Shown here: one piece after another, positions 9,075-62,899 of the stretch
Layout of the letters: each line of letters starts with the position of its first letter
Position numbering within the stretch: the first letter of the stretch is position 1
Source of the DNA: Styela clava
Lineage: Eukaryota; Chordata; Ascidiacea; Stolidobranchia; Styelidae
Assembly (NCBI RefSeq): GCF_964204865.1
Contig: NC_135258.1
Span: 4,207,001-4,271,000, forward strand
DNA length: 64,000 nt
Direction: 5' to 3'
Notes under the pieces: model-generated
Told to the model about the DNA's origin: nothing
Databases searched by the model: none
What the model saw: only the letters and a program-made list of their open reading frames with translations
Program-made: the position numbers and the translations under genes

Positions 9075-12000
9075 CTAAATGTTGATACTTTTCCAGAATT
9101 TATGATCAACAACCTGCTGAATTGTTAGTCGTTGGTCTTCATCATCGTGTGTCATTCTTGTGAGCAAATCAAAGGCCAAGTGAGGGTTAGGAATCAGTAA
9201 AGCACTTGGATCCATAGCTACTGTAGAATCTAAGATTAGCTTTCGGTCAATCAGTTTATTAGACCACAATTTATACAAGGTGTGACACAAGGATAAAATA
9301 TCATCTTTAAAGCTGGAATTATATATTAAAATACCTAAAAAATAGGTCTTGAAACAAATTTTCACATTTTGCATGTCAAGTGAAAACAAAATATTCGGCA
9401 ACAAATATCCATGAACAATATTATATTTATGCAAATGTTGTAAAGCACTAACTAACTGTTTTGCATGTATGAGAGCAAGTCTAGGATCAAAAAGAATTTT
9501 GTTTTTCGTTCTCTCTTTATAATAATTATCAAGAGTTTGGAACTGGCATCTTTCAGTAGCAACAAAAGTTTGACTTGTTTCATTCAAACGACCACTAGCA
9601 ATAACAGAGATTACGTTTGAATGAGGTGGAAGTTGCTGAAGAGCTTTTAGTTCGTGTAGAAAGTTTTCATTCCGCAAAGAACACACCCATATTGCTAAGG
9701 GTTCTGTAACTGAATTTGGAAGTTTCCGTTGACCTTCGTAAACTGTGAAATTTAAACTCTCATAAACCACATTGTCTTTAGACCACAAGATGTCATCAGT
9801 GAGTTGTATGCGATCTGGAAATGTCACATTTAAAAAATTAATTTGAATTAAAAAACAATTTATAATAAACCTTGTGGGTCAAATGACAATTTTAAGCATG
9901 GTTACGGTAAGTATAAAGTTCAAACACTTTTAGTTTGGCTCAATATGTCATATTATTTAGAAAAAATTGAAGAAATACGAATGCCAAGCACAAATACCTT
10001 TAGTTTGCAATGCCACTATATTTTGAAAATTAAAGCCATGCACTCATTGTTTTATGTTAAAAATGTAGTATCCGTATTAGGTGTTCAAATAAATCGAATA
10101 AGCGAATAATTGGACGCAAATAATTGCGGTGTATGTGCAACACTTTGGAATCAATACTTAATTATGAGGATGAGCTCAAACCCAAATAATTAACTGTCGG
10201 TAGACGAAATAACAGAATACATTTTTCCACAGATTTGTTCTTGATCGTACACGAACATTTACGATAATACGCAAATTCATTAAATAAACTTTACTGAGAT
10301 TTTTTCAACTAATATAATGAAATTCCGATAACCGATAAAGCTTTTTGAGTCAAAAAAAGGTTATTATGCTTCAATACAAGGAATGTTGAAATCAACTTTT
10401 CTTACTTTTTGAGGTCAAAGCTGCCTTTCTATTCTTTTCCTTGGCTTCAAGATATTTTGCAAAGTGGAAATTATTAACAAGCTCTGATAATGAAGTTGCA
10501 ACTTGTGAAGAATGACTGAAATTAGATTGATTAGTTTTTGTAGGAAAATTAATTTGATTGTTACGAATAAGTTTTATTACCTATTGCTATGGTCCATCCT
10601 TGCATGATAACAGCCATGTTAGATACACCAATGAGAATATATATTCATAACAACATGCTTCATCAAGGATAGGTGGGACCAGAATTCTTATTTTGAAATT
10701 ATGTTTATTTTAGATTTGGTATTGCCTCATTCGAAAAAATACTTCTGCAGTGGGAACTATTCTTGGTAAATCTAAAATATATTGTTCACGAAAAATATTT
10801 GTGAGACAGGCACAATTTGTAAAACAATTACAAAACATGGCTGGCTCAATAGACAAGGGTTCTATTTGCTACCGCGAAAATAAAATATGGGTCGATTTCC
10901 TACGACCTATATATACCCTTGTTTGATAATTCGCACGCTACGTTTATTGGAATATGTAAATAGGAACATTCAAGTACGACGGACAAATTGCTGACTTCTC
11001 AATGCTGTATAGGGGTCATGTAACATGTAACCACCGGTCGGTCATGGCTTCCTCCACTATAAAGCCCATGCATCTGAAACAAATAAATGATTAACTAATC
11101 CCAAACCTTTTAGTTTTCTTTTTTGTTGCCAAATCTGATTTGAAAGTTCCATTTTTAAAATGTGGAAGCAAAAGTTCATCATGGATGCTTGTTTGAGACC
11201 TGCCAGGTGCAAATTCTTCCTGTAGATCTCGGAATAGTAAACCTGAACAGAAAGTTTCCTTGATAAGTGTTTAATTTCAGTTAGCAATAGGGCAATATCT
11301 CAAAAACCCCTTACTATAAGAAAACGTTTTCAAATAGGGAATAAAAATAATATAACGAAAAGGTTGGGAACCACAGCTATAAGTTATTGAGGAAAAAATA
11401 AAATGAAAAAAATATCGCGAACTTCACGACGCGCAGATTAGAAATAGCAGTTAAATTACAATGTATATGTCAATGGCCCGATCCCCAGCACATCTAGTTG
11501 ACCAACCATCACAATACACATGTATTTGCATTTCAATCAATTTTTCTTACCTTTTACATTCGGTGGAGCCATATATTTATGAGAGAGAACCTCGTTTATT
11601 ATTGGACGTTTACGAGGAACAAACTGCAGAATCCATTCCAGTAAATCTTTTGCAACTTCTTTGTCTGGAACTAAAAGTCCGTCCAGATTCAGGTTTTTAT
11701 GATTTTTCATGAAATGATTCCATAGATCCCTTTCGTCACCAAAGGGATGTTTACCGTCACTCCATACATAGTAAACAATGACAGCCAGTGAATATATGTC
11801 AGTTTTTTGGGAAGTTGGAAATCCAGGCACAAATGATTCAGGGGGTCTGTAACCGTCAGTACCGAGATCTTTTCTGGTGTAAATTGTTTGAGTCTTTGAC
11901 TCTATGACTTCACTTATGCCAAAATCACCAATTTTGACAACTTTTTGATCCAGGGATAAAAACACATTATCAGGCTTAAGATCTTTGTGCACCACAAGTT

Positions 12001-12597
12001 TATCATGAATGTATAAAATTCCAGCAAATAACTGTTTTGCAAAATCAAGTGCAAGTTCAGGATCGAATGGGATTTCGGCTTTCTTTCGATTTTCCACAAA
12101 ACCTCTCAAGTTGTCTTGGTTACATTTGTCCATTGCAATGTACATATATTTCATTGGACCTTGTTGGTATTCATCTGAATGTATCACAGAGACTACATGT
12201 GTGTGAGGGTTCAGTCGATAAAGAATTTTTGCCTCTTCCACACTTTGTTTGTTGTATTGAACAAATTTTATCGCAATCGGACGAATTCCATAAGTTGCAC
12301 TCGATATTTGTCCTTCATATACATCACCATGGTTTGAAATTTTTCTATCTCGAAACAGCAAAATAGAATCGGAGAGTTTGGTCGAGTCTGAAAAGGGAGA
12401 ATAAAATAGAAAATAAAAAGATTTAATATATTTATGATATAAAATAAATTATTGCCAAGCAGATCACTAACCAAGTATCACCCAATAGTGATCGAAAGGT
12501 TGCTTGTTTAAAACTACACGAGGCAATTGGAAGCAAGAAATAAAAATACAAACCAACCTTCACTATCTTCAGATTCACTTTCTTTATTATCCTCCAT
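9075..12597 (-). CDS. Gene A: IRE1/RNase L-like kinase-pseudokinase protein, type I, intact (620 aa)
   Basis: Exons: 12597-12558, 12387-11551, 11242-11107, 10515-10406, 9814-9075. All junctions are GT-AG and keep one frame to a TAG. The ATG opens an acidic start (MEDNKESESEDSE). Kinase 1 (about residues 25-286) has Lys54 in AIK, a helix-C Glu near 64, the HKDLKPDN loop (Asp149), DFG at 168-170, PPE at 195-197 and a GKHPFGD motif like IRE1, so it should be active on Ser/Thr substrates. Residues 293-374 are a basic linker (KKKTK). The second domain (375-620) has Trp417 in place of the ATP-binding Lys, HGY in place of HRD and no DFG, so it is a pseudokinase. It ends in DHKFW, which in IRE1 precedes the KEN nuclease; no KEN, signal peptide or membrane segment is present. 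The exon 3 donor is a weak GTTTGG. Substrate and partners are unknown. Confidence 0.85.
10975..11101. repeat. SINE 3' fragment in gene A intron 3
   Basis: The segment with CATGCATCTGAAAC and TTAACTAATCCC matches the body of the tRNA-derived SINEs at about 30815-31040 and 62518-62843. Longer versions lie in the same intron of gene C (about 37320-37510) and gene E (about 60710-60900). In gene A the 3' part was deleted up to a few bases from the exon 3 splice donor. Confidence 0.6.
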
Positions 12598-12830
12598 TTT
12601 CAGACTTTTCTCATATTTGACAATTCCAACCAAAGTAAATTAAACTAAATTAAATTTAACTACTAGGAGAAAAAAGGTTAAAATTTCACTAGCCGTCATA
12701 CAAAAGACGGAATGATATGTTTGGTTAAAAGTGACTTTTGCTATACATATTTAGATGATGTTACATAATTTCATGATGGGCGCGGTTTTCTGTGTTCATG
12801 TTCCTCCCTTATCCCAGCCTTGTTCTAAGC
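12598..12830 (-). promoter_or_regulatory. Upstream flank of gene A
   Basis: Directly upstream of the ATG is a short block (mRNA sense GAGAAAAGTCTGAAA before ATG) that resembles the flanks of genes C and E and of the decayed first exons at 14571, 15648 and 28561. This conserved block is the best candidate for the 5' UTR or promoter. No clear TATA box was identified. Confidence 0.3.
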
Positions 12831-17384: not shown

Positions 17385-18221
17385 TAAACTTTCTGGCAAA
17401 ACAAATTGGTAAATTCACTGTGATTTTAGTGTGATATAGTTACCAGAATACCAAGTGATGGTAAAGTACCAGCAACATTGCTTTGTATGTCGAATGAAAA
17501 TGAATTAGTCTAAATAATCATATTCCTAATTGAGGAAATTTTGAAATATCTCAATCATTCAATTTACCTCAAAACAACAAGACCGAATTATGTGGTAAGG
17601 TTTCAAACAGGCGTGTACAGACATTGTATCAGTGCCTTGTACCGATCATTTGTTGAGCGCTTATGAGGTAATGATTCGAATAAAAAGTAACCTTGCGTTT
17701 TGTTTGTCTTGGTTGTTGATTTAATAGAATATGTAGAACTCTTTATGATTCTTTATGGAAGACGTGTGATGCTATACTACAGCCCTCGCTATTTTTTAAT
17801 TTACACGCTCACGCCCACTTGTCTATTGCTTGGCTGTAAGAAGACTTGAAATAAATGTGGTTCTACATTTCACCGATGGCTACAGTCGAAGCGTTGCTAT
17901 AGGTGTATTGTACTATTTCTTATGTTTATATTAAATAAATAGGCCTATATCTGCTTTTCCACATCTTTATTCGGAGAAAAATGTTGATACCCCGTTTGCA
18001 AAACTGTTTTATTATTCGTGATTCATCTCCAAGATCCCGCTACTTTTAAAAAAAAATATTCCCACACCTTGGATACCGCATGGAGGGTACGGGTGAAACA
18101 AGTTTTAGGGGTTGCAAAGAGTGCAACAATTTAACACAAAGTACCGTATATATTCTACTTTTTTATACTTTAGATTTGAAACACCAAGCACGTATAAATG
18201 TATATATACGTCTCTCTGTTA
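17385..18221. repeat. Intergenic module upstream of the minisatellite
   Basis: Non-coding sequence is copied at about 22020-23060 and 43190-44235, and as a diverged relative at 28100-29450 and 49640-50990. It contains no recognisable gene. Reading frames within it are not preserved between the type I and type II flanks. Confidence 0.5.
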
Positions 18222-19404
18222 GTGTTTTTATACTACTAAATCTCCTTATTATTTTCGTTGCATATATATATATATATATCAATGTGTAAATACCCTATAC
18301 GCACTCTATTATTGGCTTTTATACTACTAAGTCTTCCTAATAACGTCGTTGCGTACATATATAAATGTATACATACTTCCCACTATTAATGGCTTTTATA
18401 CTACAAAGTCTCCCTAATAAGTTTGCTGCATATATATATTTATATATGTATATATGAGTTCCCTTATTACTAGTTTTTATAATACTAAGTCTTCCTAATA
18501 AGTTTGTTGCATACATTTATAAATTTATACATGCGTCCCCTTATCACTGGTTTTATACTACCAAGTCTTCCTAATAAGTTTGTTGCATACATATATAAAT
18601 GTTTATATGCGTCCCCCTATTACTGGTTTTCATAACACTAAGTCTCCCTAATAAATTTGTTGCATACATTTATAAATGTATATATACGTCCCGTTATTAC
18701 TGTTTTTTAGACTATCAAGTCTCCCTAATAAGTTTGTTGCATACATATATAAATGTATATATGAGTCCCCTTATTACTAGTTTTTATAATACTAAGTCTT
18801 CCTAATAAGTTTGTTGCATACATATATAAATGTATATATGAGTCCCCTTATTACTAGTTTTTATAATACTAAGTCTTCCTAATAAGTTTGTTGCATACAT
18901 TTATAAATGTATATATGCGTCCCCTTATCACTGGTTTTTATACTACCGAGTCTTCATAATAAGTTTGTTGCATACATATATATATGTATACATACGTCCC
19001 CTTATTACTAGTTTTTATAATACTAAGTCTCCCTAATAAATTTGTTGCATACATTTATAAATGTATATATACGTCCCGTTATTACTGTTTTTTAGACTAT
19101 CAAGTCTCCCTACTAAGTTTGTTGCATACATATATAAATGTATACATACGCCCCTATTACTGGTTTTTATAATACTAAGTCTCCCTACTAAGTTTGTTGC
19201 ATACATATATAAAAGTATACATACGCCCCTATTACTGGTTTTTTATATTACTAAGTCTCCCTAATAACGTCGTTGCATACATATATAAATGCATATATGA
19301 GTCCCTCTATAACTGGTTTTTATACTACTATGTCTCCCTAATAACGTCGTTGCATACATATATAAATGCATATATACGCCCCACTATTACTGGTTTTTAT
19401 ATTA
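18222..19404. repeat. 77-bp minisatellite, array 1
   Basis: About 15 units of roughly 77 bp contain ACTAAGTCTCCCTAATAAG, then GTTGCATACATATATAAATG, then a CGTCCCC...TTACTGG part. The middle of each unit is a self-complementary AT stretch able to fold into a hairpin. The array stops a few bases before the 3' UTR of the orphan pseudokinase exon. Apparent long frames on both strands are by-products of the repeat. Confidence 0.92.
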
Positions 19405-19458
19405 CTTGGAAATATAAAAAAAAACATGCACAAGACAAATAAATAATAAAAAGAAAAA

Positions 19459-20205
19459 CTAAATGTTGATACTTTTCCAGAATTCATGATCAATAACCTG
19501 CTGAATTGTTATTAGTTGGTCTTCATCATCGTGTGTCATTCTTGTGAGCAAATCACCAGCCAAGTGAAGGTTAGGAATAAGTAGAGTACTGGGATTAAAA
19601 GCAAGCGAAAAGGAATAATAAAAAACACGAATTTCCTGTTGATTGGACCATAATTTATACAAGTGATACCCTAAGGTAATAATATCACTTATACTGAGAT
19701 TATATCCATAGGAGTAATATGGTATAAAATAGTTCTGAAAACTAAATTTCACATTTTGCATGTATGTCATGTGAAAAAAGAATACTCCCCTCCATTTCCC
19801 CATGAACAATATTATATTTATGAAGATGTTGTAGACCACTAACTAATTGTTTTGCATGTACGAGAGCAAGTCTAGGATCAAAAGGAATATTGTTTTTTTC
19901 CCTCTCTTTGTAATATTCATGAAGAGTTTGGAACTGGCATCTTTCAGTAGCAATAAAATGTTGACTTGTTCCATTCACACGACCACTAGTCATAACAGAG
20001 ATTAGGTTTGGATGAGGTGGAAGTTGCTGAAGAGCTTCTAGTTTGTAAAGAAAGTCTGCATCCCACGAAGAAAACACCCATATTGCTAAAGGTTCTGTCT
20101 CTGAATTCGGAAGTTTCCGTTGACCTTCGTAAACTGTGAAATCCGAAAATTCATAAACCACATTGTCTTTATACCACAAGATATCATCAGTGAGATGTAT
20201 GCGAT
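19459..20205 (-). pseudogene. Orphan pseudokinase exon (exon 5 copy)
   Basis: This is a copy of the last exon of the type II kinase gene, with its TAG acceptor, stop codon and AU-rich 3' UTR. It was carried along by the 5.3-kb duplication without exons 1-4. A 4-nt insertion near 19762 (an extra ATGT) shifts the frame in the middle of the domain. It matches the exons at 24462-25204 and 45873-46615 almost completely. Upstream (20206-20455) is intron-derived sequence that breaks off at the duplication junction. It could be transcribed but cannot make the normal protein. Confidence 0.88.
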
Positions 20206-21890: not shown

Positions 21891-23064
21891 TTATAAACTA
21901 TACCGCATGAGAGGTAAATACCGACTGTAATTATGCGTTACGGTTGGATTTACGTATGAACTAAAATACTTAGACCAGTATCTCAGAATAAACATCAGCG
22001 AAGAGGAGAAGTTATAGATTAAACTTTCTGGCAAAACAAATTGGTAAATTCACTGTGATTTTAGTGTGATATAGTTACCAGAATACCAAGTGATGGTAAA
22101 GTACCAGCAACATTGCTTTGTATGTCGAATAAAAATGAATTAGTCTAAATAATCATATTCCTAATTGAGGAAATTTTGAAATATCTCAATCATTCAATTT
22201 ACCTCAAAACAACAAGACCGAATTATGTGGTGAGGTTTCAAACAGGCGTGTACAGACATTGTATCAGTGCTTCGTACCGATCGTTTGTTGAGCGCTTATG
22301 AGGTAATGATTCAAATAAAAAGTAACCTTGCGTTTTGTTTGTCTTGGTTGTTGATTTGATAGAATATGTAGAACTCTTTATGATTCTTTATGGAAGACAT
22401 GTGAGGCTATACTACAGCCCTCGCTATTTTTTAATTTACACGCTCACGCCCACTTGTCTATTGCTTGGCTGTAAGAAGACTTGAAATAAATGTGGTTCTA
22501 CATTTCACCGATGGCTACAGTCGAAGCGTTGCTATAGGTGTATTGTACTATTTCTTATGTTTATATTAAATAAATAGGCCTATATCTGCTTTTCCACATC
22601 TTTATTCGGAGAAAAATGTTGATACCCCGTTTGCAAAACTGTTTTATTATTCGTGATTCATCTCCAAGATCCCGCTACTTTTAAAAAAAAAATTAGTAAA
22701 GCTAAATGATATCGCCATTATTAGAGTGGTTCATTACCAACTTAGCTCAGGGTGAAACTTAGCAGTTGAAATTAAATATACAAGATAGGTCGACTATTTC
22801 CATCTCTTCGCCAAATATATCTAGTTGAACAGGGAAAACTAAAGCGTAAAAAATACGTGTTGTAAATATAGATTTCATTAACCCACAAATTCAAAAAATA
22901 TTCCCACACTGGGGGGGGGGGGGGATACCGCATGGAGGGTACGGGTGAAACAAGTTTTAGGGGTTACAAAGAGTGCAACAATTTAACACAAAGTACCGTA
23001 TATATTCTACTTTTTTATACTTTAGATTTGAAACACCAAGCACGTATAAATGTGTATATACGTC

Positions 23065-24461: not shown

Positions 24462-27400
24462 CTAAATGTTGATACTTTTCCAGAATTCATGATCAACAAC
24501 CTGCTGAATTGTTAGTAGTTGGTCTTCATCATCGTGTGTCATTCTTGTGAGCAAATCACCAGCCAAGTGAAGGTTAGGAATAAGTAGAGTACTGGGATTA
24601 AAAGCAAGCGAAAAGGAATATTAAAAAACACGAATTTCCTGTTGATTGGACCATAATTTATACAAGTTATACCCTGAGGTAATAATATCACTTATACTGA
24701 GATTATATCCATAGGAGTAATATGGTATAAAATAGTTCTGAAAACTAAATTTCACATTTTGCATGTCATGTGAAAAAAGAATACTCCCCTCCATTTCCCC
24801 ATGATCAATATTATATTTATGAAGATGTTGTAGACCACTAACTAATTGTTTTGCATGTACGAGAGCAAGTCTAGGATCAAAAGGAATATTGTTTTTTTCC
24901 CTCTCTTTGTAATATTCATGAAGAGTCTGGAACTGGCATCTTTCAGTAGCAATAAAATGTTGACTTGTTCCATTCACACGACCACTAGTCATAACAGAGA
25001 TTAGGTTTGGATGAGGTGGAAGTTGCTGAAGAGCTTCTAGTTTGTAAAGAAAGTCTGCATCCCACGAAGAAAACACCCATATTGCTAAAGGTTCTGTCTC
25101 TGAATTCGGAAGTTTCCGTTGACCTTCGTAAACTGTGAAATCCGAAAATTCATAAACCACATTGTCTTTATACCACAAGATATCATCAGTGAGATGTATG
25201 CGATCTAAAATGTCATATTTTTAGAAGAAAATTAAACACAAAACTTGATCTGAAGGAGAAAATAGTTAAGTGATTTACAAAATAAATATTACTGTAGTTT
25301 AAATCTGGACTTTTCAAACTAGGGGTCAACGTGAGAGCGCAAAATTGGGGTCGTGGCAAAACTTTTCCGACACTACCTCATGTTAAAACCAAAATATTGA
25401 TCAAAGATGAAACCAGTACGAAGACCAAGATAAGATATTTTGTGCAAGAATCCGTCTCTTAAAGGTATTGTCAATTTTAGTACTTTTAAAATATTTTCTG
25501 TATTATTTAATTTTGCTTTTTTTTATTTTAGTTACTGCGAGTCGAGAAAAAATTTGCCAATGCCAAGTCGCAGTTAACTGGCGTTATATTTTTGCACAGA
25601 CTTGGTTTTGATGGTACATGATGGCAGAATTATTTATTCAAAAAAATTTTGAGCAAACATAACATCATTTCTTATCCAAGATAGTTTTTTTGTGGTAAAT
25701 CGGATACAAAACACCCGGAAATTAAATGTTAAGTAAAAATACAAGCATTGTTAAAATAAACTTATCTTACCTACGGAGGTCGAAGCTGCCTTCCTATTCT
25801 TTGCTTGTTCTTTAAGATATTTTACAAAGTGGAAATTATTAACGAGCTTTGATAATGAAGTTGCAACTTGTGAAGAATGACTGAAATTATGATTGGCTAG
25901 TTTTAGTTGAAAAAATTATTTGACTACCACAGCCAATAATAATATTCTATTCATCTATTGCTAAGGTTAATTCCTGCATGATATTAGTCATGTTAAACAC
26001 ACCAATAAAAAACATTTATAGCCTCCTGCTCAATCTAGGACAGGAAAATTATGTTATTTTGCAGTTTGTTTTAGATTAACAGTCGCCTTAGTCAATAAAA
26101 ATACTCCTGGGAATTAATCTTGGTAATTTTAAAATAAAATATATTGTCCACAAAAAATATTTGTAAGATATAATAAATCAATATACAGGCTAAGTATACA
26201 AACATTTTAGTTTTCTTTCTTGTTGACAAATCTGATTTAAAAGTTCCATTCTCAAAATGTGGAAGCAAAAGTTTATCATGGCTGCTCGTTAGAGAGCTGC
26301 CAGGTGTAGATTCTTCCTGTAGATCTCGGAATAGTAAACCTGAACAGAGAGTTTTCTTTGATAAGTGTTAACTTTCAGTTAGCAATCACAATATCTCAAA
26401 TAATATTTTTTCCTACCTTTTACATTTGTTGGAGCCATATATTTATGAGAGAGAACCTCGTTTATTATTGGACGTTTACGAGGAACAAACTGCAGCATCC
26501 ATTCCAGTAAATCTTTTGCAACTTCTTTATCTGGAACTAAAAGTCCGTCCAGGTTCAGGTTTTTATGGTTTTTCATGAAATGATTCCATAGATCCCTTTC
26601 GTCACCAAAGGGATGTTTACCGTCACTCCATACATAGTAAACAATGACAGCCAGTGAATATATGTCAGTTTTTTGTGAAGTTGGAAATCCAGGCACAAAT
26701 GATTCAGGGGGTCTGTAACCGTCAGTACCGAGACCTTTTCTGGTGTAAACTGTTTGAGTCTTTGACTCGATGACTTCACTTATGCCAAAATCACCAATTT
26801 TGACAACTTTTTGATCCAGGGATAAAAACACATTATCAGGCTTAAGATCTTTGTGCACCACAAGTTTATCATGAATGTATAAAATTCCAGCAACTAACTG
26901 TTTTGCAAAATCAAGTGCAAGTTCAGGATCGAATGGGATTTCGGTTTTCTTTCGATTTTCAACAAAACCTCTCAAGTTGTCTTGGTTACATTTGTCCATT
27001 GCAATGTACATATATTTCATTGGACCTTGTTGGTATTCATCTGAATGAATCACAGAGACTACATGAGTGCTAGGGTTCAGTCGGTAAAGAATTTTTGCCT
27101 CTTCCACACTTTGTTTGTTGTATTGAACTAATTTTATCGCAATCGGACGAGTTCCATAAATTGCACTCGATATTTCTCCTTCATATACATCGCCATGGTT
27201 CGAAATTTTTTTATCTTGAAACAGCAAAATAGAATCGGAAAGTTTGATCGAATCTGAAAAAACAAAATTTGATAAGGTTTACAGATTTCCACCCAACAGA
27301 CCATTTGACCACAATGTGGCATTAAAGAGTTTAAGACTGTGATATTTAAGTTATGAGTTTAAAGTATTAATATACAAATAGGAGAAAATGATTGTTTAAT

Positions 27401-35668: not shown

Positions 35669-38600
35669 CTAAATTTTGATACTTTTCCAGAATTTATGAT
35701 CAACAACCTGCTGAATTGTTAGTCGTTGGTCTTCATCATTGTGTGTCATTCTTGTGATCAAATCAAAGGCCAAGTCAGGGTTAGGAATCAGTAAAGCACT
35801 TGGATCCATAGCTACTGTAGAATCTAAGATTAGCCCTTGGTCAATCTGTTTATTAGACCACAATTTATACAAGGTGTGACCCAAGAATAAAATATCATTT
35901 TTAAATCTGGAATTATATATGAGAGAAAATGAAAAATAAATCTGAAAACAAATTTTCACATTTTGCATGTCAAGTGAAAACAGAATATATTTCTAATTTT
36001 CCATGAGTAGTATTATGTTTATGCAGATGTTGTAGACCACTAACTAACTGTTTTGCATGTATGAGAGCAAGTCTAGGATCAAAAGGAATTTTGTTGTTCT
36101 TTCTCTCTTTATAATAATCATCAAGAGTTTGGAACTGGCATCTTTCAGTAGCAAGAAAACGTTCCCTTGTTTCCTTCCAACGACCATAAGCAATAACAGA
36201 GATTACGTTTGGATGAGGTGGAAGTTGCTGAAGAGCTTCTAAGTTGTTAAGAAAGAGTTTATCCCAAAAACACACCCATATTGCTAAAGGTTTTGTAACT
36301 GAATTTGGAAGTTGTTGTTGACCTTCGTAAACTGTAAAATCCAATTCTTCATGAACCACATTGTCTTTATACCACAAGATGTCATCAGTGAGTTGTATGC
36401 GATCTGGAAATGTCACATTTAAAAAATTTATTTGAATTAAAAAACAATTTATAATAAACCTTGTGTGTCAAATGACAATTTTAATCATGGTCACGGTAAG
36501 TATACAGTTCAAAACACTCTTAGTTTGGCACAATATGTCATAATATTTAGAAAAAATTGAAGAAATACAAATGTCAAGCCCTAATAGCTTTAGTTTGCAA
36601 TGTCACCGTTGCGTTAATTGCGGTTTATGTGCAGGCACTTTGGAGTTTTTCGAGTTAAATTCAAATGCAAAAAAAAAGTTAATACGCTTCAATACAAGGA
36701 ATAATGAAATAAACCTTTCTTACTTTTTGAGTTCAGAGCTGCCTTTCTATTCTTTTCTTTGGCTTCAAGGTATTTTGCAAAGTGGAAATTATTAACAAGC
36801 TTTGATAATGAAGTTGCAACTTGTGAAGAATGACTGAAATTAGATTGATTAGTATTTGTAGAAAAAGTTATTTGATTGTTACGAATAAGTTTTATTACCT
36901 ATTGCTATGGCCCATCCCTCCATGATAACAGCCATGTTAGATACACCAATAAGAATATATATATCCGTAACAACATGTTTAATCAAGGATAAGTGTGACC
37001 AGGATTCTTATTTTGAATTTATGTTTATTTTAGATTTGGTATTGCCTCATTCGGAAAAATACTTCTGCAGTGGGAACTATTTTTGCTAAATCTAAAATAT
37101 ATTGTTCACGGAAAATATTTGTGAGACAGCCACAATTTGTGAAACAATTACAAAACATGGCTGGCTCAATAGACAAGGGTTCTATTTGCTACCGCGAAAA
37201 TAAAATATGGGTCGATTTCCTACGACCTATATAAACCCTTGTTTGATAATTCGCACGCTAGAAACCAAGTTTATTGGAATGTGTAAATAGGAACATTCGA
37301 GTAGAACGAACAAATTGCTGACTTCTCAATGCTGTATAGGGGTCATGTAACATGTAACCACCGGTCGGTCATGGCTTTCTCTACTATAAAGCCCATGCAT
37401 CTGAAACAAATAAATGGTTAACTAATCCCATACCCGACATGGACTGCTAACTGAACGAGAGGCAGTGGTATGCCATATGATTAAGCCGTTTATCGAATTA
37501 TTTCTCCCCCGTGATAAAATTATAACTCAGGCTTTTTGCAAAAGCAAGTTGGGAACATTCATGAAGGAAGACTGCAAATGAGTAATATTCAAATAATACA
37601 GCAAAATAAATACACAAACCTTGTAGTTTTCTTTTTTGTTGGCAAATCTGATTTGAAAGTTCCATTTTTAAAATGTGGAAGCAAAAGTTCGTCATGGATG
37701 CTTGTTTGAGACCTGCCAGATGCAAATTCTTCCTGTAGATCTCGGAATAGTAAACCTGAACAGAAAGTTTTCTTTGATAAGTGTTTAATTTCAGTTAGCA
37801 ATAGGGCAATATCTCAAAAACCCCTTACTATAAGAAAACGTTTCCAAACATGGAAAAAAATAATATAACTGAAAGGTTGGGAACCACAGCTATAAGTTAT
37901 TGAGGGGAAAATGAAATGGAAAAAATATAGCAAACTTCACGACGCGCAGATTAGAAATAGCAGTTAAATTACAATGTATATGTCAATGGCCCGATACCCA
38001 GCACATCTAGTTGACCAACCATTAAAATACCCATGTATTTACATTTCAATCAATTTTTCTTACCTTTTACATTCGGTGGAGCCATATATTTATGAGAGAG
38101 AACCTCGTTTATCATTGGACGTTTACGAGGAACAAACTGCAGCATCCATTCCAGTAAATCTTTTGCAACTTCTTTGTCTGGAACTAAAAGTCCATCCAGG
38201 TTCAGGTTTTTATGATTTTTCATGAAATGATTCCATAGATCCCTTTCGTCACCAAAGGGATGTTTACCGTCACTCCATACATAGTAAACAATGACAGCCA
38301 GTGAATATATGTCAGTTTTTTGAGAAGTTGGAAATCCAGGCACAAATGATTCAGGGGGTCTGTAACCGTCAGTACCGAGACCTTTTCTGGTGTAAATTGT
38401 TTGAGTCTTTGACTCTATGACTTCACTTATGCCAAAATCACCAATTTTGACAACTTTTTGATCCAGGGATAAAAACACATTATCAGGCTTAAGATCTTTG
38501 TGCACCACAAGTTTATCATGAATGTACAAAATTCCAGCAAATAACTGTTTTGCAAAATCAAGTGCAAGTTCAGGATCGAATGGGATTTCGGCTTTCTTTC

Positions 38601-39110
38601 GATTTTCCACAAAACCTCTCAAGTTATCTTGGTTACATTTGTCCATTGCAATGTACATATACTTCATTGGACCTTGGTGGTATTCATCTGAATGTATCAC
38701 AGAGACTACATGAGTGTGAGGGTTCAGTCGATAAAGAATTTTTGCCTCTTCCACACTTTGTTTGTTGTATTGAACGAATTTTATCGCAATCGGACGAATT
38801 CCATAAGTTGCACTCGATATTTGTCCTTCATATACATCACCATGGTTTGAAATTTTTCTATCTCGAAACAGCAAAATAGAATCGGAGAGTTTGGTCGAGT
38901 CTGAAAAGGGAGAATAAAATAGAAAATAAAAAGATTTAATATATTTATGATATAAAATAAATTATTGCCAAGCAGATCACTAACCAAGTAGCACCCAATA
39001 GTGATCGAAAGGTTGCTTGTTCAAAACTACACGAGGCAATTGGGAGCAAGAAATAAAAATACAAACCAACCTTCACTATCTTCAGATTCACTTTCTCTAT
39101 TTTCCTCCAT
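35669..39110 (-). CDS. Gene C: kinase-pseudokinase, type I, frameshifted in the pseudokinase (518 aa)
   Basis: Exons: 39110-39071, 38900-38064, 37755-37620, 36833-36724, 36403-35970 (premature stop; ancestral stop at 35669). The start is MEENRESESEDSE. Kinase 1 has all catalytic motifs and differs from gene A at only a few residues. In exon 5 the segment after HGKLE is 2 nt shorter than in gene E, so a TGA follows within a few codons and about 100 residues of the pseudokinase C-lobe are lost from frame. The downstream part remains open as a separate 99-codon frame (35669-35968), so the lesion is recent. The product would be an active kinase with half a pseudokinase. Confidence 0.82.
37320..37510. 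repeat. SINE fragment in gene C intron 3
   Basis: It contains the ATGCATCTGAAACAAAT and TTAACTAATCCCATACCC blocks of the tRNA-derived SINE. It is longer than the equivalent in gene A and very like that in gene E. Confidence 0.6.
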
Positions 39111-45872: not shown

Positions 45873-48800
45873 CTAAATGTTGATACTTTTCCAGAATTCA
45901 TGATCAACAACCTGCTGAATTGTTATCAGTTGGTCTTCATCATCGTGTGTCATTCTTGTGAGCAAATCACCAGCCAAGTGAAGGTTAGGAATAAGTAGAG
46001 TACTGGGATTAAAAGCAAGCGAAAAGGAATATTGAAAAACACGAATTTCCTGTTGATTGGACCATAATTTATACAAGTGATACCCTAAGGTAATAATATC
46101 ACTTATACTGAGATTATATCCATAGGAGTAATATGGTATAAAATAGTTCTGAAAACTAAATTTCACATTTTGCATGTCATGTGAAAAAAGAATACTCCCC
46201 TCCATTTCCCCATGAACAATATTATATTTATGAAGATGTTGTAGACCACTAACTAATTGTTTTGCATGTACGAGAGCAAGTCTAGGATCAAAAGGAATAT
46301 TGTTTTTTTCCCTCTCTTTATAATATTCATGAAGAGTTTGGAACTGGCATCTTTCAGTAGCAATAAAATGTTGACTTGTTCCATTCACACGACCACTAGT
46401 CATAACAGAGATTAGGTTTGGATGAGGTGGAAGTTGCTGAAGAGCTTCTAGTTTGTAAAGAAAGTCTGCATCCCACGAAGAAAACACCCATATTGCTAAA
46501 GGTTCTGTCTCTGAATTCGGAAGTTTCCGTTGACCTTCGTAAACTGTGAAATCCGAAAATTCATAAACCACATTGTCTTTATACCACAAGATATCATCAG
46601 TGAGATGTATGCGATCTAAAATGTCAATTTTTAGAAGAAAATTAAACACAAAACTTGATCTGAAGGAGAAAATAGTTGAGTGATTTACAAAATAAATATT
46701 ACTGTAGTTTAAATCTGGACTTTTCAAACTAGGGGTCAACGTCAGAGCGCAAAATTGGGGTCGTGGCAAAACTTTTCCGACACTACCTCATGTTAAAACC
46801 AAAATATTGATCAAAGATGAAACCAGTACGAAGACCAAGATAAGATATTTTGTGCAAGAATCCGTCTCTTAAAGGTATTGTCAAATTTAGTACTTTTAAA
46901 ATATTTTCTGTATTATTTAATTTTGCTTTTTTTTATTTTAGTTACTGCGAGTCGAGAAAAAATTTGCCAATGCCAAGTCGCAGTTAACTGGCGTTATATT
47001 TTTGCACAGACTTGGTTTTGATGGTACATGATGGCAGAATTATTAATTCAAAGAAAATTTTGAGCAAACATAACATCATTTCTTATCCAAGATAGTTTTT
47101 TTGTGGTAAATCGGATACAAAACACCCGGAAATTAAATGTTAAGTAAAAATACAAGCATTGTTAAAATAAACTTATCCTACCTACGGAGGTCCAAGCTGC
47201 CTTCCTATTCTTTGCTTGTTCTTTAAGATATTTTACAAAGTGGAAATTATTAACGAGCTTTGATAATGAAGTTGCAACTTGTGAAGAATGACTGAAATTA
47301 TGATTGGCTAGTTTTAGTTGAAAAAATTATTTGACTACCACAGCCAATAATAATATTCTATTCATCTATTGCTAAGGTTAATTCCTGCATGATATTAGTC
47401 ATGTTAAACACACCAACAAAAAACATTTATAGCCTCCTGCTCAATCTAGGACAGGAAAATTAAGTTATTTTGCAGTTTGTTTTAGATAAACAGTCGCCTT
47501 AGTCAATAAAAATACTCCTGGGAATTAATCTTGGTAATTTTAAAATAAAATATATTGTCCACAAAAAATATTTGTAAGATATAATAAATCAATATACAGG
47601 CTAAGTATACAAACATTTTAGTTTTCTTTCTTGTTGACAAATCTGATTTAAAAGTTTCATTCTCAAAATGTGGAAGCAAAAGTTTATCATGGCTGCTCGT
47701 TAGAGAGCTGCCAGGTGTAGATTCTTCCTGTAGATCTCGGAATAGTAAACCTGAACAGAGAGTTTTCTTTGATAAGTGTTAACTTTCAGTTAGCAATCAC
47801 AATATCTCAAATAATATTTTTTTCATCGTTAGAGAGCTGCCAGGTGTAGATTCTTCCTGTAGATCTCGGAATAGTAAACCTGAACAGAGAGTTTTCTTTG
47901 ATAAGTGTTAACTTTCAGTTAGCAATCACAATATCTCAAATAATATTTTTTCCTACCTTTTACATTTGTTGGAGCCATATATTTATGAGAGAGAACCTCG
48001 TTTATTATTGGACGTTTACGAGGAACAAACTGCAGCATCCATTTCAGTAAATCTTTTGCAACTTCTTTATCTGGAACTAAAAGTCCGTCCAGGTTCAGGT
48101 TTTTATGGTTTTTCATGAAATGATTCCATAGATCCCTTTCGTCACCAAAGGGATGTTTACCGTCACTCCATACATAGTAAACAATGACAGCCAGTGAATA
48201 TATGTCAGTTTTTTGTGAAGTTGGAAATCCAGGCACAAATGATTCAGGGGTCTGTAACCGTCAGTACCGAGACCTTTTCTGGTGTAAACTGTTTGAGTCT
48301 TTGACTCGATGACTTCACTTATGCCAAAATCACCAATTTTGACAACTTTTTGATCCAGGGATAAAAACACATTATCAGGCTTAAGATCTTTGTGCACCAC
48401 AAGTTTATCATGAATGTATGAAATTCCATCAAATAACTGTTTTGCAATATCAAGTGCAAGTTCAGGATCGAATGGGATTTCGGTTTTCTTTCGATTTTCA
48501 ACAAAACCTCTCAAGTTGTCTTGGTTACATTTGTCCATTGCAATGTACATATATTTCATTGGACCTTGTTGGTATTCATCTGAATGAATCACAGAGACTA
48601 CATGAGTGTGAGGGTTCAGTCGGTAAAGAATTTTTGCCTCTTCCACACTTTGTTTGTTGTATTGAACAAATTTTATCGCAATCGGACGAGTGCCATAAGT
48701 TGCACTCGGTATTTCTCCTTCATATACATCGCCATGGTTCGAAATTTTTTTATCTCGAAACAGCAAAATAGAATCGGAAAGTTTGATCGAATCTGGAAAA

Positions 48801-51433: not shown

Positions 51434-52778
51434 CAGGGGTGGCCAACCTTTCACATACCATGCGCCACGTTTTAAACATAATGTTTCAGATGCGCCGTAA
51501 ATCTCTTGTATTCGAACGCCTAATGTCCGCTCCTTGTTGAAATTGTATAAATTTATAATACACACACATATATACACACGTATATGTAGTTTTTACAATT
51601 TACAACTCCACATGAATAGAAATTAAGCAAGGAAGTATAATAAATAAAACTGATCAATTTTATTTAAGTACCGCCTTTATGAGACTTTTGCTGCTGTTTT
51701 ACTTTCGAAGTTTTTTTATTCTTGGAGTTAAGTTTGTTACTGAGAGGAGCAGTGCATTCTTCAAATTTCAAATCTGTAAGTCTTGACCTCGCTTTGCTTT
51801 TAATCAGTTTCATGGCAGAAAAATGTTTTTTCACATCTATATGTCGTTCCGAAACGACATATAAAACCCTGGGCAAATTTTCTCAGTTCTGGAAAATTTT
51901 TACGGGGTAACGATTGCCAGGACTTGATCATGTCAGATGCACTTGGGACTGGAGAAAGCTCATCAAATTTAATTTTCAATGATGGATGAGTTTTCAAGTC
52001 AATTAGTTCCAATTGTATATTGCTTGGCATCTTCATTATGGTTAGTTCACTAAGTGAAAATGGGTTTATGTTACTTATGTTACTGCCCCCACCGGCCAAG
52101 GGTAGAGTACTCTACCCTCGGTTCCAATTGGCCTTTGCTAATCAGCTGTTTGGCCTAGCGTCGCGTGATTTTACTCCAGGCTTTTTCGAGATTAGTACTT
52201 GCGTCACAGCAAGCGATTTTACGCTTCGCTTTTGTTGACAACGGTCATTTGAAGTTTGGATGAAAAAGGTGGTATTTAGGGGTCATTTTCAGCATGTTGT
52301 GGGTTGATTTATAATAAATTGTTTAGGCTTTGGCAATTCAACTGGTTGTTCAATGGTTATTGGGAGATATTTGGGAAGTCTGGGCAGTGGAAAATCCATG
52401 TTTCAAGCTGATAAATGACGATTTTCTATTTTCTCCAAAAGTTCTGAACTTTTTACTTCAGTAGGGAAAAAATAGTGAATTTTACTAATTTTTGCTAAAA
52501 CTCCAGAATGAATGTCATAAAGTCCGTCCAAAAGCTAACGTCGATAATCGCCTGTTGTTTCTAATTCCAACAAGCCGTAAGTGGGCGACGTGGAGTAAGG
52601 AGAATAGATTTTAGGTACAATCAAAAGTCACCATGTAAATCGCAAAAAAACGGCTTGGCGTGGAGAAGCCAAGTGCAATTAACAATTTTGGCATGAAAAG
52701 GGTTAAAGATGCAATGCGCCACCTCTAATCATGCAATGCGCCACGTTTGGCGCATGCGCCAAAGGTTGGCCACCCCTG
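51434..52778 (-). mobile_element. hAT element with transposase remnant, 1345 bp
   Basis: The ends CAGGGGTGGCCAACC and GGTTGGCCACCCCTG are good inverted repeats, with GCGCCACG subterminal repeats. The matching position in unit 1 (about 29888-29895) has no element. The flanks do not form a clean 8-bp duplication: the other copy equals the left flank less one T joined to the right flank less one A. A perfect 20-bp palindrome is at 52099-52118. Confidence 0.85.
51664..52099 (-). pseudogene. hAT transposase C-terminal remnant
   Basis: Two overlapping minus-strand frames (51800-52099 and 51664-51876) together resemble the C-terminal dimerisation region of hAT transposases: SWQSLPRKNFPELRKFA, then a FG(T)TYRCEK-like part in one frame and FSAMKLIKSKARSRLTD in the other. 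The frameshift at the join and the absence of the zinc-finger and catalytic N-terminal parts make it non-functional. Confidence 0.78.
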
Positions 52779-58777: not shown

Positions 58778-61700
58778 CTAAATGTTGATACTTTTCCAAA
58801 ATTCATGATCAACAACCTGCTGAATTGTTAGCCGTTGATCTTCATCATCGTGTGTCATTCTTATGAGCAAATCATTGGCCAAGTGAGGGTTAGGAATCAG
58901 TAAAGCACTTGGATCCATAGCTAATGTAAATTCTAAAAATTCTGAGATTTGCCCATGGTCAATCAATTTATTAGTCCACAATCTATACAAGATGTAACCC
59001 AAGGAAATAATATCATTTTTAAAGCTAGAATTATATATGAAAGAAATTGAAAAATAATTCTGAAAACAAATTTTCACATTTTGCATGTCAAGTGAAAACA
59101 GAATATCGGTTTCTAATATTCCATGAGTAGTATTATGTTTATGCAGATGTTGTAGACCACTAACTAACTGTTTTGCATGTACGAGAGCAAGTCTAGGATC
59201 AAAAGAAATTTTGTTTTTCTTTCTCTCTTTATAATAATCATCGAGAGTTTGCAACTGGCATCTTTCAGTAGCAACAAAAAGTCCACTTGTTTCCCTCAAA
59301 CGACCACTAGCAATAACAGAGATTACGTTTGGATGAGGTGGAAGTTGCTGATAAGCTTTTAGTTTGTGAAAAAAGCCTTCAGTCCACGAAGAATACACCC
59401 ATATTGCTAAAGGTTCTGTCACTGAATTTGGAAGTTTCCGTTGACCTTCGTAAACTGTAAAATTCAGACCCCCATAAACCACATTGGTTTTATACCACAA
59501 GATGCCATCAGTGAGTTGTATGCAATCTGGAAATGTCACATTTTAAAAATTAATTTGAACTATAATAAACCTTGTGGGTCAAATGACAATTTTAAGCAAG
59601 ATCACGGTAAGTATAAAGTTCAAAACACTTTTAGTTTGGCACAATATGTCATAATATTTAGAAAAAATAGAAGAAATACGAATGCCAAGCACTAATACCT
59701 TCAGTTTGCAATGCCACTATATTTTGAAAATTAAAGCCATGCACTCATTGTTTTATGTTAAAAATGTAGTATCCGTATTAGGTGTTCAAATAAATCGAAT
59801 GAGCGAATCAAATAATTGCGGTGTATGTGCAGGCACTTTGGAACCAATACTTAATTACGAAGAAAAGCTCAAACCCAACTAATTAACTGTCGGTAGACCA
59901 AATGACATAATACACTTTTTCACAGATTTGTTTTTGGTGGTGCACGAACATTTACGGTAATACGCAAATTCATGAATTAAACTTTACTGAATTCAAATTT
60001 TTTCAAATTATACAATGAAACTCTTGACCGATAGAGTTTTTTGAGTCAAATTCGAATGCAAAAAAAGTTAATATGCTTCAATACAAGGAATGTTGAAATA
60101 AACCTTTCTTACTTTTTGAGTTCAGAGCTGCCTTTCTATTCTTTTCTTTGGCTTCAAGATATTTTGCAAAGTGGAAATTGTTAACAAGCTTTGATAATGA
60201 AGTTGCAACTTGTGAAGAATGACTGAAATTAGATTGATTAGTTTTTGTAGGAAAAGTTATTTGATTGTTAATAAGTTTTAATAACCTATTGCTACGGTTC
60301 ATCCTTGCATGATAACAGCCATGTTACATATGCCAACGAGAATATATATTCATAACAACATGCTTAATCAAGGATAAGTGTGACCAGGATTCTCATTTTA
60401 AATTCATGTTTATTTTAGATTTGGTATTGCCTCGTTCGAAAAAATACTTCTGCACTGGGAACTATTCTTGGTAAATCTATAATATATTGTTCACGAAAAA
60501 TATCTGTGAGACAGCCACAATTTGTGAAACAATTACAGAACATGGCTGGCTCAATAGACAAGGGTTCTATTTGCTACCGCGAAAATAAAATATGGGTCGA
60601 TTTCCTACGACCTATATATATCCTTGTTTGATAATTCGCACGCTAGAAACCAAGTTTATTGGAATGTGTAAATAGGAACATTCGAGTAGAACGAACGAAT
60701 TGCTGATTTCTCAATGCTGTATAGGGGTCATGTAACATGTAACCACCGGTCGTTCATGGCTTCCTCCACTATAAAGCCCATGCATCTGCAACAAATAAAT
60801 GGTTAACTAATCCCATACCCGACATGGACTGCTGACTGAACGAGAGGCAGTGGTATGCCATATGATTAAGCCGTTTATCGACATACCTCTCCCCCGTGAT
60901 AAAAATTATAACTCAGCCTTTTTGCAAAAGCAAGTTGGGAACATTTATGAAGGGAGACTACAAATGAGTAATATTCAAATAATACAGCAAAATAAATACA
61001 CAAACCTTTTAGTTTTCTTTTTTGTTGGCAAATCTGATTTGAAAGTTCCATTTTTAAAATGTGGAAGCAAAAGTTCGTCATGGATGCTTGTTTGAGACCT
61101 GCCAGGTGCAATTTCTTCCTGTAGATCTCGGAATAGTAAACCTGAACAGAAAGTTTTCTTTGATAAGTGTTTAATTTCAGTTAGCAATAGGGCAATATCT
61201 CAAAAACCCCTTACTATAAGAAAACGTTTCCAAACATAAAAAAAAATAATATAACTGAAAGGTTGGGAACCACAGCTATAAGTTATTGAGGGAAAAATGA
61301 AATGGAAAAAATATAGCAAATTTCACGACGCGCAGATTAGAAATAGCAGTTAAATTACAATGTATATGTCAATGACCCGATGCCCAGCACATCTAGTTGA
61401 CCAACTATCAAAATACCCATGTATTTACATTTCAATCAATTTTGCTTACCGTTTACATTCGATGGAGCCATGTATTTATGAGAGAGAACCTCGTTTATTA
61501 TTGGACGTTTACGAGGAAAAAACTGCAGCATCCATTCCAGTAAATCTTTTGCAACTTCTGCATCTGGAACTAAAAGTCCATCCAGGTTCAGGTTTTTATG
61601 GTTTTTCATGAAATGATTCCATAGATCCTTTTCGTCACCAAAGGGATGTTTACCGTTACTCCATACATAGTAAACAATGACAGCCAGTGAATATATGTCA

Positions 61701-62899
61701 GTTTTTTGAGAAGTTGGAAATCCAGGCACAAATGATTCAGGGGGTCTGTAACCGTCAGTACCGAGACCTTTTCTGGTGTAAACTGTTTGTGTCTTGGACT
61801 CGATGACTTCACTTATGCCAAAATCACCTATTTTGACAACTTTTTGATCCAAGGATAAAAACACATTATCAGGCTTAAGATCTTTGTGCACCACAAGTTT
61901 ATCATGAATGTATAAAATTCCAGCAAATAACTGTTTTGCAAAATCAAGTGCAAGTTCGGGATCAAATTGGATTTCGGCTTTCTTTCGATTTTCCACAAAA
62001 CCTCTCAAGTTATCTTGGTTACATTTGTCCATTGCAATGTACATATATTTCATTGGACCTTGTTGGTATTCGTCTGAATGAATCACAGAGACTACATGAG
62101 TGTGAGGGTTCAGAAGGTAAAGAATTTTTGCCTCTTCCACACTTTGTTTGTTGTATTGAACAAATTTTATTGCAATCGGACGAGTTCCATAAGTTGCACT
62201 TGATATTTGTCCTTCATATACGTCACCATGGTTTGAAATTTTCTTGTTCCGAAACATTAAAATAGTTTCGGATAGATTGATCGATTCTGTAAAGTGAGAA
62301 TAAATATAGAAAATCAAAATGTTTCAATGTATTTATGATATAAAATAAGTTAATGCCAGAAAGGCGAACCAGTTAAAATTTGAGAGATTAAAAATATTTT
62401 CAGATGCTGGCTACTCTTTAACCTCACTAACCAAGTAGCTGGAAGCAATACTGATCAAGAGGTTGCTGGTTTAAAAGAAAACACGACAATCAACATAAAT
62501 TAAAATACAGGACATAGAGGCTCGGTGGTGTAGTGCATTGTGCTAATCGTTAGGAATATGTTTGCCCCCGCATCCATGATTCCCCTGCGGGGGTTTGAAT
62601 TCCGTTGGGGATAATTATGTACGAGAAGATTGCTGGACTCTTAGCCGCAGTGGTTGGTTCAAGTAAACGCTGGTCGGTTACCAGGTTACCCATTTCTCCT
62701 CCATCAAGTCCATGCATTTGAAATTAAATATTTGACTACTAATCCCATGCCCATCATGGGCTGGTAACCGGACGAGAGGCTGTTGTTGGCCACATGATTA
62801 ATTCGTCTTATTAACTTTCGTTTCCCGGGGGTAAATGTGTAAATTTTGAACAAACCAACCTTCACTATCTTTGGCTTCAGATTCTTTGTTTTCCTCCAT
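58778..62899 (-). CDS. Gene E: IRE1/RNase L-like kinase-pseudokinase, type I, intact (623 aa)
   Basis: Exons: 62899-62860, 62286-61450, 61141-61006, 60222-60113, 59526-58778; the frame is continuous to TAG. The start is MEENKESEAKDSE. Kinase 1 keeps the AIK lysine, HKDLKPDN, DFG, PPE and a GKHPFGD motif, so it is predicted active. The linker exons encode a QEEIAPGRSQTS-like part with a basic KKKTK end and an SSQVATSLSKLVNNF part. The second domain has AIW for AIK, HGI for HRD and no DFG. It is the most diverged type I copy. Intron 1 is 573 bp against 170 bp in A and C because it holds a SINE. With gene A it is one of two copies able to make the whole protein. Confidence 0.85.
60710..60900. 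repeat. SINE fragment in gene E intron 3
   Basis: It shares the ATGCATCTG and TTAACTAATCCCATACCC blocks with the SINE family and is nearly the same as the fragment in gene C. Confidence 0.6.
62518..62843 (+). repeat. tRNA-derived SINE in gene E intron 1
   Basis: The 5' part looks like a tRNA: an A-box-like TGGTGTAGTGC and a B-box-like GGTTTGAATTCC about 50-60 nt later. The body has the CATGCATTTGAAA and CTAATCCCATGCCC blocks of the family. Intron 1 of genes A and C lacks it. Clear target duplications were not identified. Confidence 0.72.

What the first reader, a model, noticed from the sequence alone, without database searches (positions are those of the whole stretch)
9075..62899. Expanding tandem array of fused kinase-pseudokinase genes related to IRE1/RNase L
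Five genes and one loose exon on one strand encode an active-looking IRE1/RNase L-type kinase followed by a degenerate second kinase domain, without the KEN nuclease, sensor or membrane parts that define known IRE1 and RNase L proteins. I know of no described family with this order (active first, pseudo second, both IRE1-like). Exon lengths 837, 136 and 110 nt and phases 1, 1, 2, 1 agree in all five genes except for gene D's 1-nt deletion in exon 2. Fast copy-number growth and decay are typical of defence or recognition families; the function is inference.
Basis: partly seen in the sequence, partly recalled or inferred. Interest (0 to 1): 0.88.

Follow-up and report, generated by a model that had tools for sequence, protein, structure and literature searches.

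The report
Animal tandem kinase-pseudokinase gene array
An animal genome carries a large, fast-changing row of genes that each join a conserved, working-looking enzyme (a kinase related to the stress sensor IRE1) to a dead and highly variable copy of it, a layout known from plant immune receptors that I did not find described for this enzyme family.

Summary
The window has five units (A-E) and a loose exon of an array of about 23 units at C10:4.06-4.39 Mb of the host genome. A second cluster lies at 5.94-6.33 Mb, with relatives on C4 and C18. A and E give complete 620- and 623-aa proteins: 13-codon start, active-looking kinase (K1), 82-aa linker, degenerate kinase (K2), stop. Conserved splice sites, in-frame linker exons and a relative with K1, linker and K2 in one 679-aa frame support fusion. 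Family profiles of both domains match IRE1 best in the PDB. No KEN nuclease or membrane segment was found. Catalytic residues are kept in 26 of 26 open K1 copies; DFG is lost in 25 of 25 open K2 copies. K1 is constrained (dN/dS 0.20); K2 evolves near 1 yet its frame is kept. K1 and K2 distances are uncorrelated, pointing to exon exchange. I read it as a conserved output kinase with a variable recognition or regulatory pseudokinase, working like plant tandem kinase proteins. Function is inferred; positive selection is not proven.

The parts
62860..62899 (-). gene E exon 0 (ATG, 13 codons + 1 base; MEENKESEAKDSE)
61450..62286 (-). gene E exon 1, active-looking IRE1-type kinase K1 (837 nt)
61006..61141 (-). 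gene E exon 2, linker (136 nt)
60113..60222 (-). gene E exon 3, linker (110 nt)
58778..59526 (-). gene E exon 4, pseudokinase K2 and stop (749 nt)
47957..48792 (-). gene D exon 1, K1 with 1-nt deletion (836 nt)
47615..47750 (-). gene D exon 2 (136 nt); a partial second copy begins at 47879
47182..47291 (-). gene D exon 3 (110 nt)
45873..46615 (-). gene D exon 4, K2, open
39071..39110 (-). gene C exon 0
38064..38900 (-). gene C exon 1, K1, open
37620..37755 (-). gene C exon 2
36724..36833 (-). gene C exon 3
35669..36403 (-). gene C exon 4, K2, frame shifted
26417..27253 (-). gene B exon 1, K1, open (exon 0 not found)
26204..26339 (-). gene B exon 2
25771..25880 (-). gene B exon 3
24462..25204 (-). 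gene B exon 4, K2 with in-frame stop
19459..20205 (-). loose exon 4 (K2), frame shifted by 4 extra bases
12558..12597 (-). gene A exon 0 (MEDNKESESEDSE)
11551..12387 (-). gene A exon 1, K1
11107..11242 (-). gene A exon 2
10406..10515 (-). gene A exon 3
9075..9814 (-). gene A exon 4, K2 and stop

Best explanation
The array encodes proteins of about 620 residues, apparently cytosolic. Each is an IRE1-type Ser/Thr kinase expected to be active (K1), joined by an 82-residue linker to an IRE1-derived pseudokinase (K2). K2 has lost the ATP-site, catalytic and activation-segment residues and ends where IRE1 would continue into its KEN nuclease. K2 most likely acts in cis as regulator and recognition surface. 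At rest it pairs with K1, in place of the IRE1 kinase partner, and restrains it. A ligand or foreign protein binding the variable K2 surface releases or dimerises K1, which then phosphorylates itself and a downstream target instead of switching on an attached RNase. Amplification and exon exchange between copies supply many K2 variants on one output kinase. Shown: anatomy, fusion by sequence, family, absence of KEN, copy number, open frames, unequal constraint on the two halves, exchange. Inferred: K1 activity, cis control, ligand recognition, a defence or self/non-self role.
For: Fusion: splice boundaries, and linker exons in order and in frame, with a 9-nt in-frame addition in four of five cluster-2 copies; ATG-to-stop models for A and E; one 679-aa K1-linker-K2 frame on C18 and the same order on C4. 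Family. Catalytic residues kept in 26 of 26 open K1 copies; DFG lost in 25 of 25 open K2 copies. dN/dS 0.20 for K1 and 0.95 for K2 over 78 pairs of 13 intact copies. K2 is still held open: 0 private stops against 6-8 expected, and 10 in-frame against 2 frameshifting gap events (the stop in B is at a site that is not private and so is not in this count). K2 dN exceeds intron-3 distance in 35 of 36 pairs of nine copies. K1 and K2 synonymous distances are uncorrelated (rho -0.04, 78 pairs), and site patterns switch at the K1 exon. In plants, kinase-pseudokinase proteins give disease resistance, and a decoy role is proposed there (PMC6170490 and PMC10260399, passages).
Against: No transcript, activity or ligand evidence. 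dN/dS among private K2 changes is 0.70, and the interval for whole K2 spans 1, so relaxed constraint explains part or all of it. The 35 of 36 was reached after dropping two copies with a shortened intron 3; with them it is 36 of 55. K1 synonymous distance also exceeds the distances of introns 1 and 2, so introns may understate the neutral rate. 8 of 23 cluster-1 units are broken or were not read in full. The structure model of K2 was poor (mean pLDDT 46.6), so surface claims rest on sequence subdomains.
Confidence: 0.45

Rival explanations
1. K2 is an ordinary cis-acting scaffold or inhibitor of K1 with no recognition role. Once its active site was lost, most of its surface became free to drift, so the fast change reflects relaxed constraint and the copy number reflects unequal crossing-over.
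For: Whole-K2 dN/dS is near 1, not clearly above it (bootstrap 0.76-1.24; 0.70 for private changes). Some K2 parts stay constrained: helix E region 0.41, b7-b8 0.18.
Against: K2 dN exceeds intron-3 distance in 35 of 36 pairs of nine copies (36 of 55 with two more copies). Helix C and b4-b5 give 2.3-2.6, on few synonymous changes. Many in-frame length variants occur.
Confidence: 0.33
2. The copies are mostly a decaying by-product of tandem duplication with no present function; the conserved kinase exon only reflects recent conversion.
For: B, C, D, x, K4097, K4312 and K6204 are broken; K4166 and K4181 also show stops in one half. Minisatellites and an LTR element lie in the region.
Against: 15 of 23 cluster-1 units are open over exons 1-4. 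No private stops in K2 or K1, where 6-8 and 3-6 would be expected. K1 catalytic residues are invariant in open copies.
Confidence: 0.08
3. K1 and K2 are separate genes. K1 ends a few codons into intron 1 (for example NVKGKKN-stop) and K2 has its own start.
For: The K1 frame closes 3-11 codons after the donor site in A, B, C and E.
Against: The donor is kept, linker exons are conserved and in frame while introns are not, and C18 reads both domains in one frame.
Confidence: 0.04
4. The family serves self/non-self or gamete recognition or intragenomic conflict rather than pathogen defence; K2 is the allotype-bearing part.
For: Diversity is concentrated in one exon, with exchange between copies, in tandem clusters.
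Against: No polymorphism or expression data. No membrane segment was seen in A or E, which speaks against a surface recognition protein.
Confidence: 0.1

Closest known systems
IRE1 (ERN1)
   Same: Nearest solved sequence for both K1 and K2 by profile. The same genome has a canonical IRE1 on C5 (L001; PDB IRE1 at 3.1e-154).
   Different: No luminal sensor, membrane segment or KEN nuclease was found; a second, dead kinase instead.
RNase L and KEN-bearing pseudokinases
   Same: Same IRE1-type family; RNase L also has a degenerate kinase domain (recalled). The genome has KEN proteins whose kinase part looks degenerate, L004, L006, L008.
   Different: No KEN and no ankyrin repeats found; here the pseudokinase follows an active-looking kinase.
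Plant tandem kinase-pseudokinases (TKP, WTK1/Yr15)
   Same: Kinase then pseudokinase, no other conserved domain, catalytic-loop residues lost in the pseudokinase (PMC6170490, passages).
   Different: Related to plant kinase families; here IRE1-type and animal. Convergent layout, not homology.
JAK and GCN2
   Same: A kinase and a pseudokinase in one chain; the TKP paper calls the JAK structure unique among animal kinases (passages).
   Different: Pseudokinase first and other domains (FERM/SH2; RWD/HisRS), both recalled. GCN2 appears in the K1 profile list below the best IRE1 entries.

Membership tests
IRE1 | IRE1-type kinase domain | tested here: met
   K1 profile: IRE1 3e-26; K2 profile: IRE1 6.4e-17, with a calcium-dependent kinase close behind at 3.7e-16. 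With the single K2 of gene E, PLK1 (1.7e-5) ranks above IRE1 (8.8e-4).
IRE1 | C-terminal KEN ribonuclease | tested here: not met
   42 PF06479 matches genome-wide (a lower bound), none listed on C10. tblastn of ten open frames from eight KEN loci matched only K1 and K2 regions; one of these matches, E 0.028, pairs 30 residues of the KEN part of L008 with the K2 exon of A and looks like chance. No KEN in the linkers.
IRE1 | Luminal sensor and membrane segment | tested here: not met
   First exon is 13 codons; maximum 19-residue hydropathy 1.03 in A and 1.02 in E against 2.21 in the genome's IRE1. B and D lack a known first exon.
RNase L | Ankyrin repeats, pseudokinase, KEN | tested here: not met
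   Pfam finds only kinase-type domains in the five kinase exons scanned, and no ankyrin or KEN in two linkers; no KEN on C10.
Plant TKP family | Tandem kinase then pseudokinase, no further domain | tested here: met
Plant TKP family | Plant kinase ancestry | tested here: not met
   IRE1-type by PDB profiles, and near KEN kinases of the same genome by tree; no plant TKP sequence was compared directly.
Plant TKP family | Role in immunity | not testable with these tools
   No expression or infection data.
JAK | FERM-SH2-pseudokinase-kinase order | tested here: not met
   The active-looking domain is first, and no FERM or SH2 was found in the exons and linkers scanned; the JAK order is recalled.

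The most novel reading that the evidence does not exclude
An animal counterpart of plant tandem-kinase immune receptors, evolved independently from the IRE1/RNase L family. The KEN effector was discarded, and a second kinase became a hypervariable recognition cassette in one exon, exchanged between copies and attached to a conserved output kinase.
Probability: 0.35. Interest if true: 0.86.

Novelty: new variant of a known kind. Interest (0 to 1): 0.7.

Why it matters
IRE1 and RNase L are known for coupling a kinase fold to an RNase. Here a family kept the kinase, lost the RNase and added a dead kinase, in tens of copies. If K2 is a recognition part, plants and an animal reached the same receptor layout from unrelated kinases, and recognition could be tested by exchanging one exon. 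It also gives a natural series, from C18 and C4 (ATP lysine and part of the activation segment kept) to C10 (both lost in the copies aligned), for studying how a kinase becomes a pseudokinase.

Tried and rejected
Considered and rejected: separate genes (conserved linker, C18 single frame); a KEN remnant in the linker (no Pfam match for the A linker; two sub-threshold matches to unrelated families for the B linker); an arthropod origin, my first guess (0 Chitin_bind_4 matches, but nothing rang in the controls either, so the tool says absence is not shown); relatives among viral contigs (22 stretches matched a pattern, none a relative).

Led nowhere: COX1 for the mitochondrial code (0 matches); the K2 structure model (pLDDT 46.6), so no fold search was made; omega from the IQ-TREE codon reports (no ratio could be read out); a first exon for B and D (the repeated upstream ATG element has no clear donor in the right phase); OAS (PF10421, asked ten times) and GFP (PF01353, asked once), never answered; a poly-A mark at C18 (none evident).
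Full report
OBSERVATION. The window is G000:C10:4207001-4271000 of a 376.6-Mb genome in 379 contigs. I take it for an animal because its IRE1 matches PDB IRE1 entries at 3.1e-154. On the minus strand there are five units, A-E. Each has an acceptor-bounded kinase exon of 837 nt (836 in D), linker exons of 136 and 110 nt, and a second kinase-like exon of 735-749 nt. A 40-nt first exon with ATG and a phase-1 donor is present in A, C and E. With it, A and E read through as 620 and 623 aa with one terminal stop. B, C, D and the loose exon x are broken in the ways listed under the observation check.

EXTENT. Searching the genome with K1 of gene E gave 133 matches (284 candidates, 133 scored), and with K2 of gene A 123 (151 candidates, 144 scored); both are lower bounds. 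I read 31 units: 23 in cluster 1 (C10:4.06-4.39 Mb), 6 in cluster 2 (5.94-6.33 Mb), one on C4 and one on C18. In these units K2 lies downstream of K1 on the same strand. There are also leftovers without a partner: K1 pieces near 4285454, and K2 pieces such as x, 4110247, 4357763 and 6013730. In cluster 1, 15 of 23 are open over exons 1-4. The other eight are K4097, B, C, D and K4312 (broken), K4166 and K4181 (stops in one half and not fully held), and K4379p (exon 2 not held). In cluster 2, two of six are open; a third (K5998p) looks open, but its exon-4 start was misplaced by extrapolation. Loci around B and C are 100% identical over 3852 and 3876 bases to copies 67,242 bp away, yet the K2 exon of B is only 99.5% identical to that of its twin and alone has the stop. 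This is a very recent duplication or an assembly matter.

FUSION. Of 31 units, 27 give exon 2 and 29 give exon 3 by blastn. The misses are C18 (intronless), C4 (found only by protein), and exon 2 of K4379p and K5941p, which were partly not held. Splice letters: exon 3 has AG/GT in 29 of 29. Exon 2 has them in 25 of 27 (K4181 acceptor not held, K6204 donor TG). The exon-4 acceptor is AG in 25 of 27 (K5941p and K5998p had extrapolated starts). Exon 1 has AG/GT in 28 of 30, C18 left out (not K4181 or K6328, whose K1 is broken). Exon 2 is 136 nt in cluster 1 and 145 nt, an in-frame +9, in four of five cluster-2 copies. In the five window genes exons 2 and 3 align without a gap, while introns 1-3 are gapped in 236 of 312, 511 of 802 and 428 of 689 columns. 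The C18 relative reads start, K1, linker and K2 as one 679-aa frame, and its linker aligns to that of gene A at 37 of 100 identical residues across the predicted junctions. C4 has the same order, with an exon-2-like piece (2e-4) and a weak exon-3-like piece (1.4). Whether C18 is a retrocopy is open; no poly-A mark was evident. The competing reading, K1 ending in intron 1, remains possible as a short form.

FAMILY. K1 of gene E alone matches IRE1 first in the PDB (2.8e-22; best non-IRE1 NEK1 2.3e-18). K2 of gene E alone matches PLK1 first (1.7e-5) and IRE1 at 8.8e-4. With cluster-2, C18 and C4 relatives in the profile, K2 matches IRE1 first (6.4e-17), narrowly ahead of a calcium-dependent kinase (3.7e-16); the K1 profile gives IRE1 3e-26. 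K1 and K2 profiles match each other at 1.7e-42 over 243 columns. In a 30-row tree all eight K1 rows form one clade (100/100) and all eight K2 rows another (97/96), each including C4 and C18, so the two-kinase layout is older than the C10 arrays. K1, K2 and three single kinases group at 96/96. The join to KEN-bearing kinases L003/L005/L007 has 86/79. Canonical IRE1, KEN kinase L002 and human RNase L sit at an open fork, and PKR, Aurora A and PLK1 form their own clade (96/91). The tree is midpoint-rooted; RNase L and the KEN pseudokinases are long branches.

CATALYSIS. In 26 of 26 open K1 copies (29 examined) the ATP lysine, helix-C Glu, HxD His and Asp, catalytic-loop Asn and DFG are kept; the HxD middle residue is Lys in 25 and Asn in 1. 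In 25 open K2 copies (29 examined) the ATP lysine is Trp in 21, Ser in 1, Arg in 1, and Lys only in C18 and C4. The HxD Asp is kept in one (K6259). The DFG Asp is kept in none. The C10 K2 copies aligned lack the activation segment; C18 and C4 keep part of it.

ABSENT PARTS. PF06479 (KEN) matches 42 places in the genome, none listed on C10. Ten open frames from eight KEN loci matched only K1 and K2 regions of the window; one of these, E 0.028, is a 30-residue match of a KEN part to the K2 exon of A, most likely chance. Hydropathy shows no membrane segment in A or E.

EVOLUTION. For 13 intact cluster-1 copies (K4148 and K4301 dropped as near-duplicates), mean dS/dN is 0.141/0.028 for K1 (ratio 0.20, 0 of 78 pairs above 1), 0.090/0.060 for the linker (0.67, 19 of 78), and 0.158/0.151 for K2 (0.95, 38 of 78). 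K2 is not simply free. Among 20 K2 rows, broken ones included and three near-identical ones dropped, private changes were 30 synonymous, 70 non-synonymous, 0 stop and 1 loss of a stop, with 6-8 stops expected; the stop in B is not at a private site. Gap events were 10 in-frame and 2 frameshifting. The private-change ratio is 0.70, below 1. In the 13 intact copies 39% of K2 sites and 79% of K1 sites are invariant. By subdomain the K2 ratio runs from 0.18 (b7-b8) and 0.41 (helix E) to 2.3-2.6 (helix C, b4-b5); the whole-K2 interval is 0.76-1.24. For nine copies with a full intron 3, K2 dN (0.120) exceeds intron-3 distance (0.075) in 35 of 36 pairs, and K2 dS (0.116) does so in 32 of 36. With K4189 and K4363, whose intron 3 is shortened, it is 36 of 55 for dN, and 55 of 55 against intron 2. 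K1 dS (0.144) also exceeds introns 1 and 2 (0.077, 0.061). This fits exon-centred exchange or a higher exon rate, so I do not claim positive selection as shown.

EXCHANGE. Outside the K1 exon, variable sites mostly group A, C, E against B, D. Inside it, 29 sites set E apart, 9 group A, C against the rest, and only 6 keep the outside pattern. Pairwise dS of K1 and K2 is uncorrelated (rho -0.04, p 0.73, 78 pairs). For example K4066 and E differ by dS 0.011 in K1 and 0.111 in K2. K4115 and K4341 differ by 1.5-1.8% in introns 2 and 3 but by 8-12% in K2.

MECHANISM AND COMPARISON. IRE1 kinases dimerise and trans-phosphorylate (established knowledge; the abstract of PMC7736581 says so, seen in the listing). 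A covalently attached dead partner is a plain way to hold or tune such a kinase. The plant TKP family has the same order with no other domain and loses the same kind of residues in the pseudokinase. A decoy role has been proposed there, and its authors call the JAK arrangement unique among animal kinases (PMC6170490, passages; PMC10260399, passages). My searches for a described animal or IRE1-type case (held open-access library only; listings seen, only part of the papers found) showed none. The HEPN survey (PMC3710099, passages) reports KEN expansions in Oikopleura and monocots, not this. The protein database was closed, so how widespread the family is remains unknown.

VERDICT. A real, functional-looking, amplified variant of the IRE1-type kinase family with a layout convergent on plant TKPs. 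The architecture is well supported; the recognition role is my leading but unproven reading.

Noticed in passing
genome G000, loci L001-L008 (contigs C1, C5, C6, C8): 42 KEN (PF06479) matches in the genome, none in the window: a canonical IRE1, several kinase-KEN proteins in one frame, and proteins of pseudokinase-KEN, RNase L-like layout (L004, L006, L008). Hu et al. 2018 (PMC6307210, passages) found no RNaseL in the lower Metazoa they searched.
   Followed up: partly
L072 (G000:C5:4080900-4083200) and the C5 2.65-4.43 Mb cluster: Another cluster of IRE1-like kinase frames of about 300 aa; in the one read, the kinase is followed by a frame that looks like a coiled coil.
   Followed up: no
window 28561, 50101, 14571, 15648, 20988, 41081, 42157 (minus strand): Seven copies of an upstream element share the context of the gene E start codon, with an ATG and a short conserved frame (for example MEETKEPATPVKSALLC); perhaps alternative first exons or a separate small gene.
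   Followed up: partly
window 18193-19406, 23041-24408, 44212-45819: Arrays of a roughly 77-nt minisatellite just downstream of the K2 exons of x, B and D.
   Followed up: no
window 1717-5583 (minus strand): Open frame with reverse transcriptase, RNase H and integrase domains, an LTR-type retroelement.
   Followed up: no
window 51800-52111 (minus strand): 103-aa frame that reminds me of a hAT-type transposase end (recalled; no Pfam match).
   Followed up: no
G000:C5:17933888-17936271: Degenerate K1 and K2 matches in a row with several stops, probably a dead dispersed copy; the stretch was not fetched.
   Followed up: no
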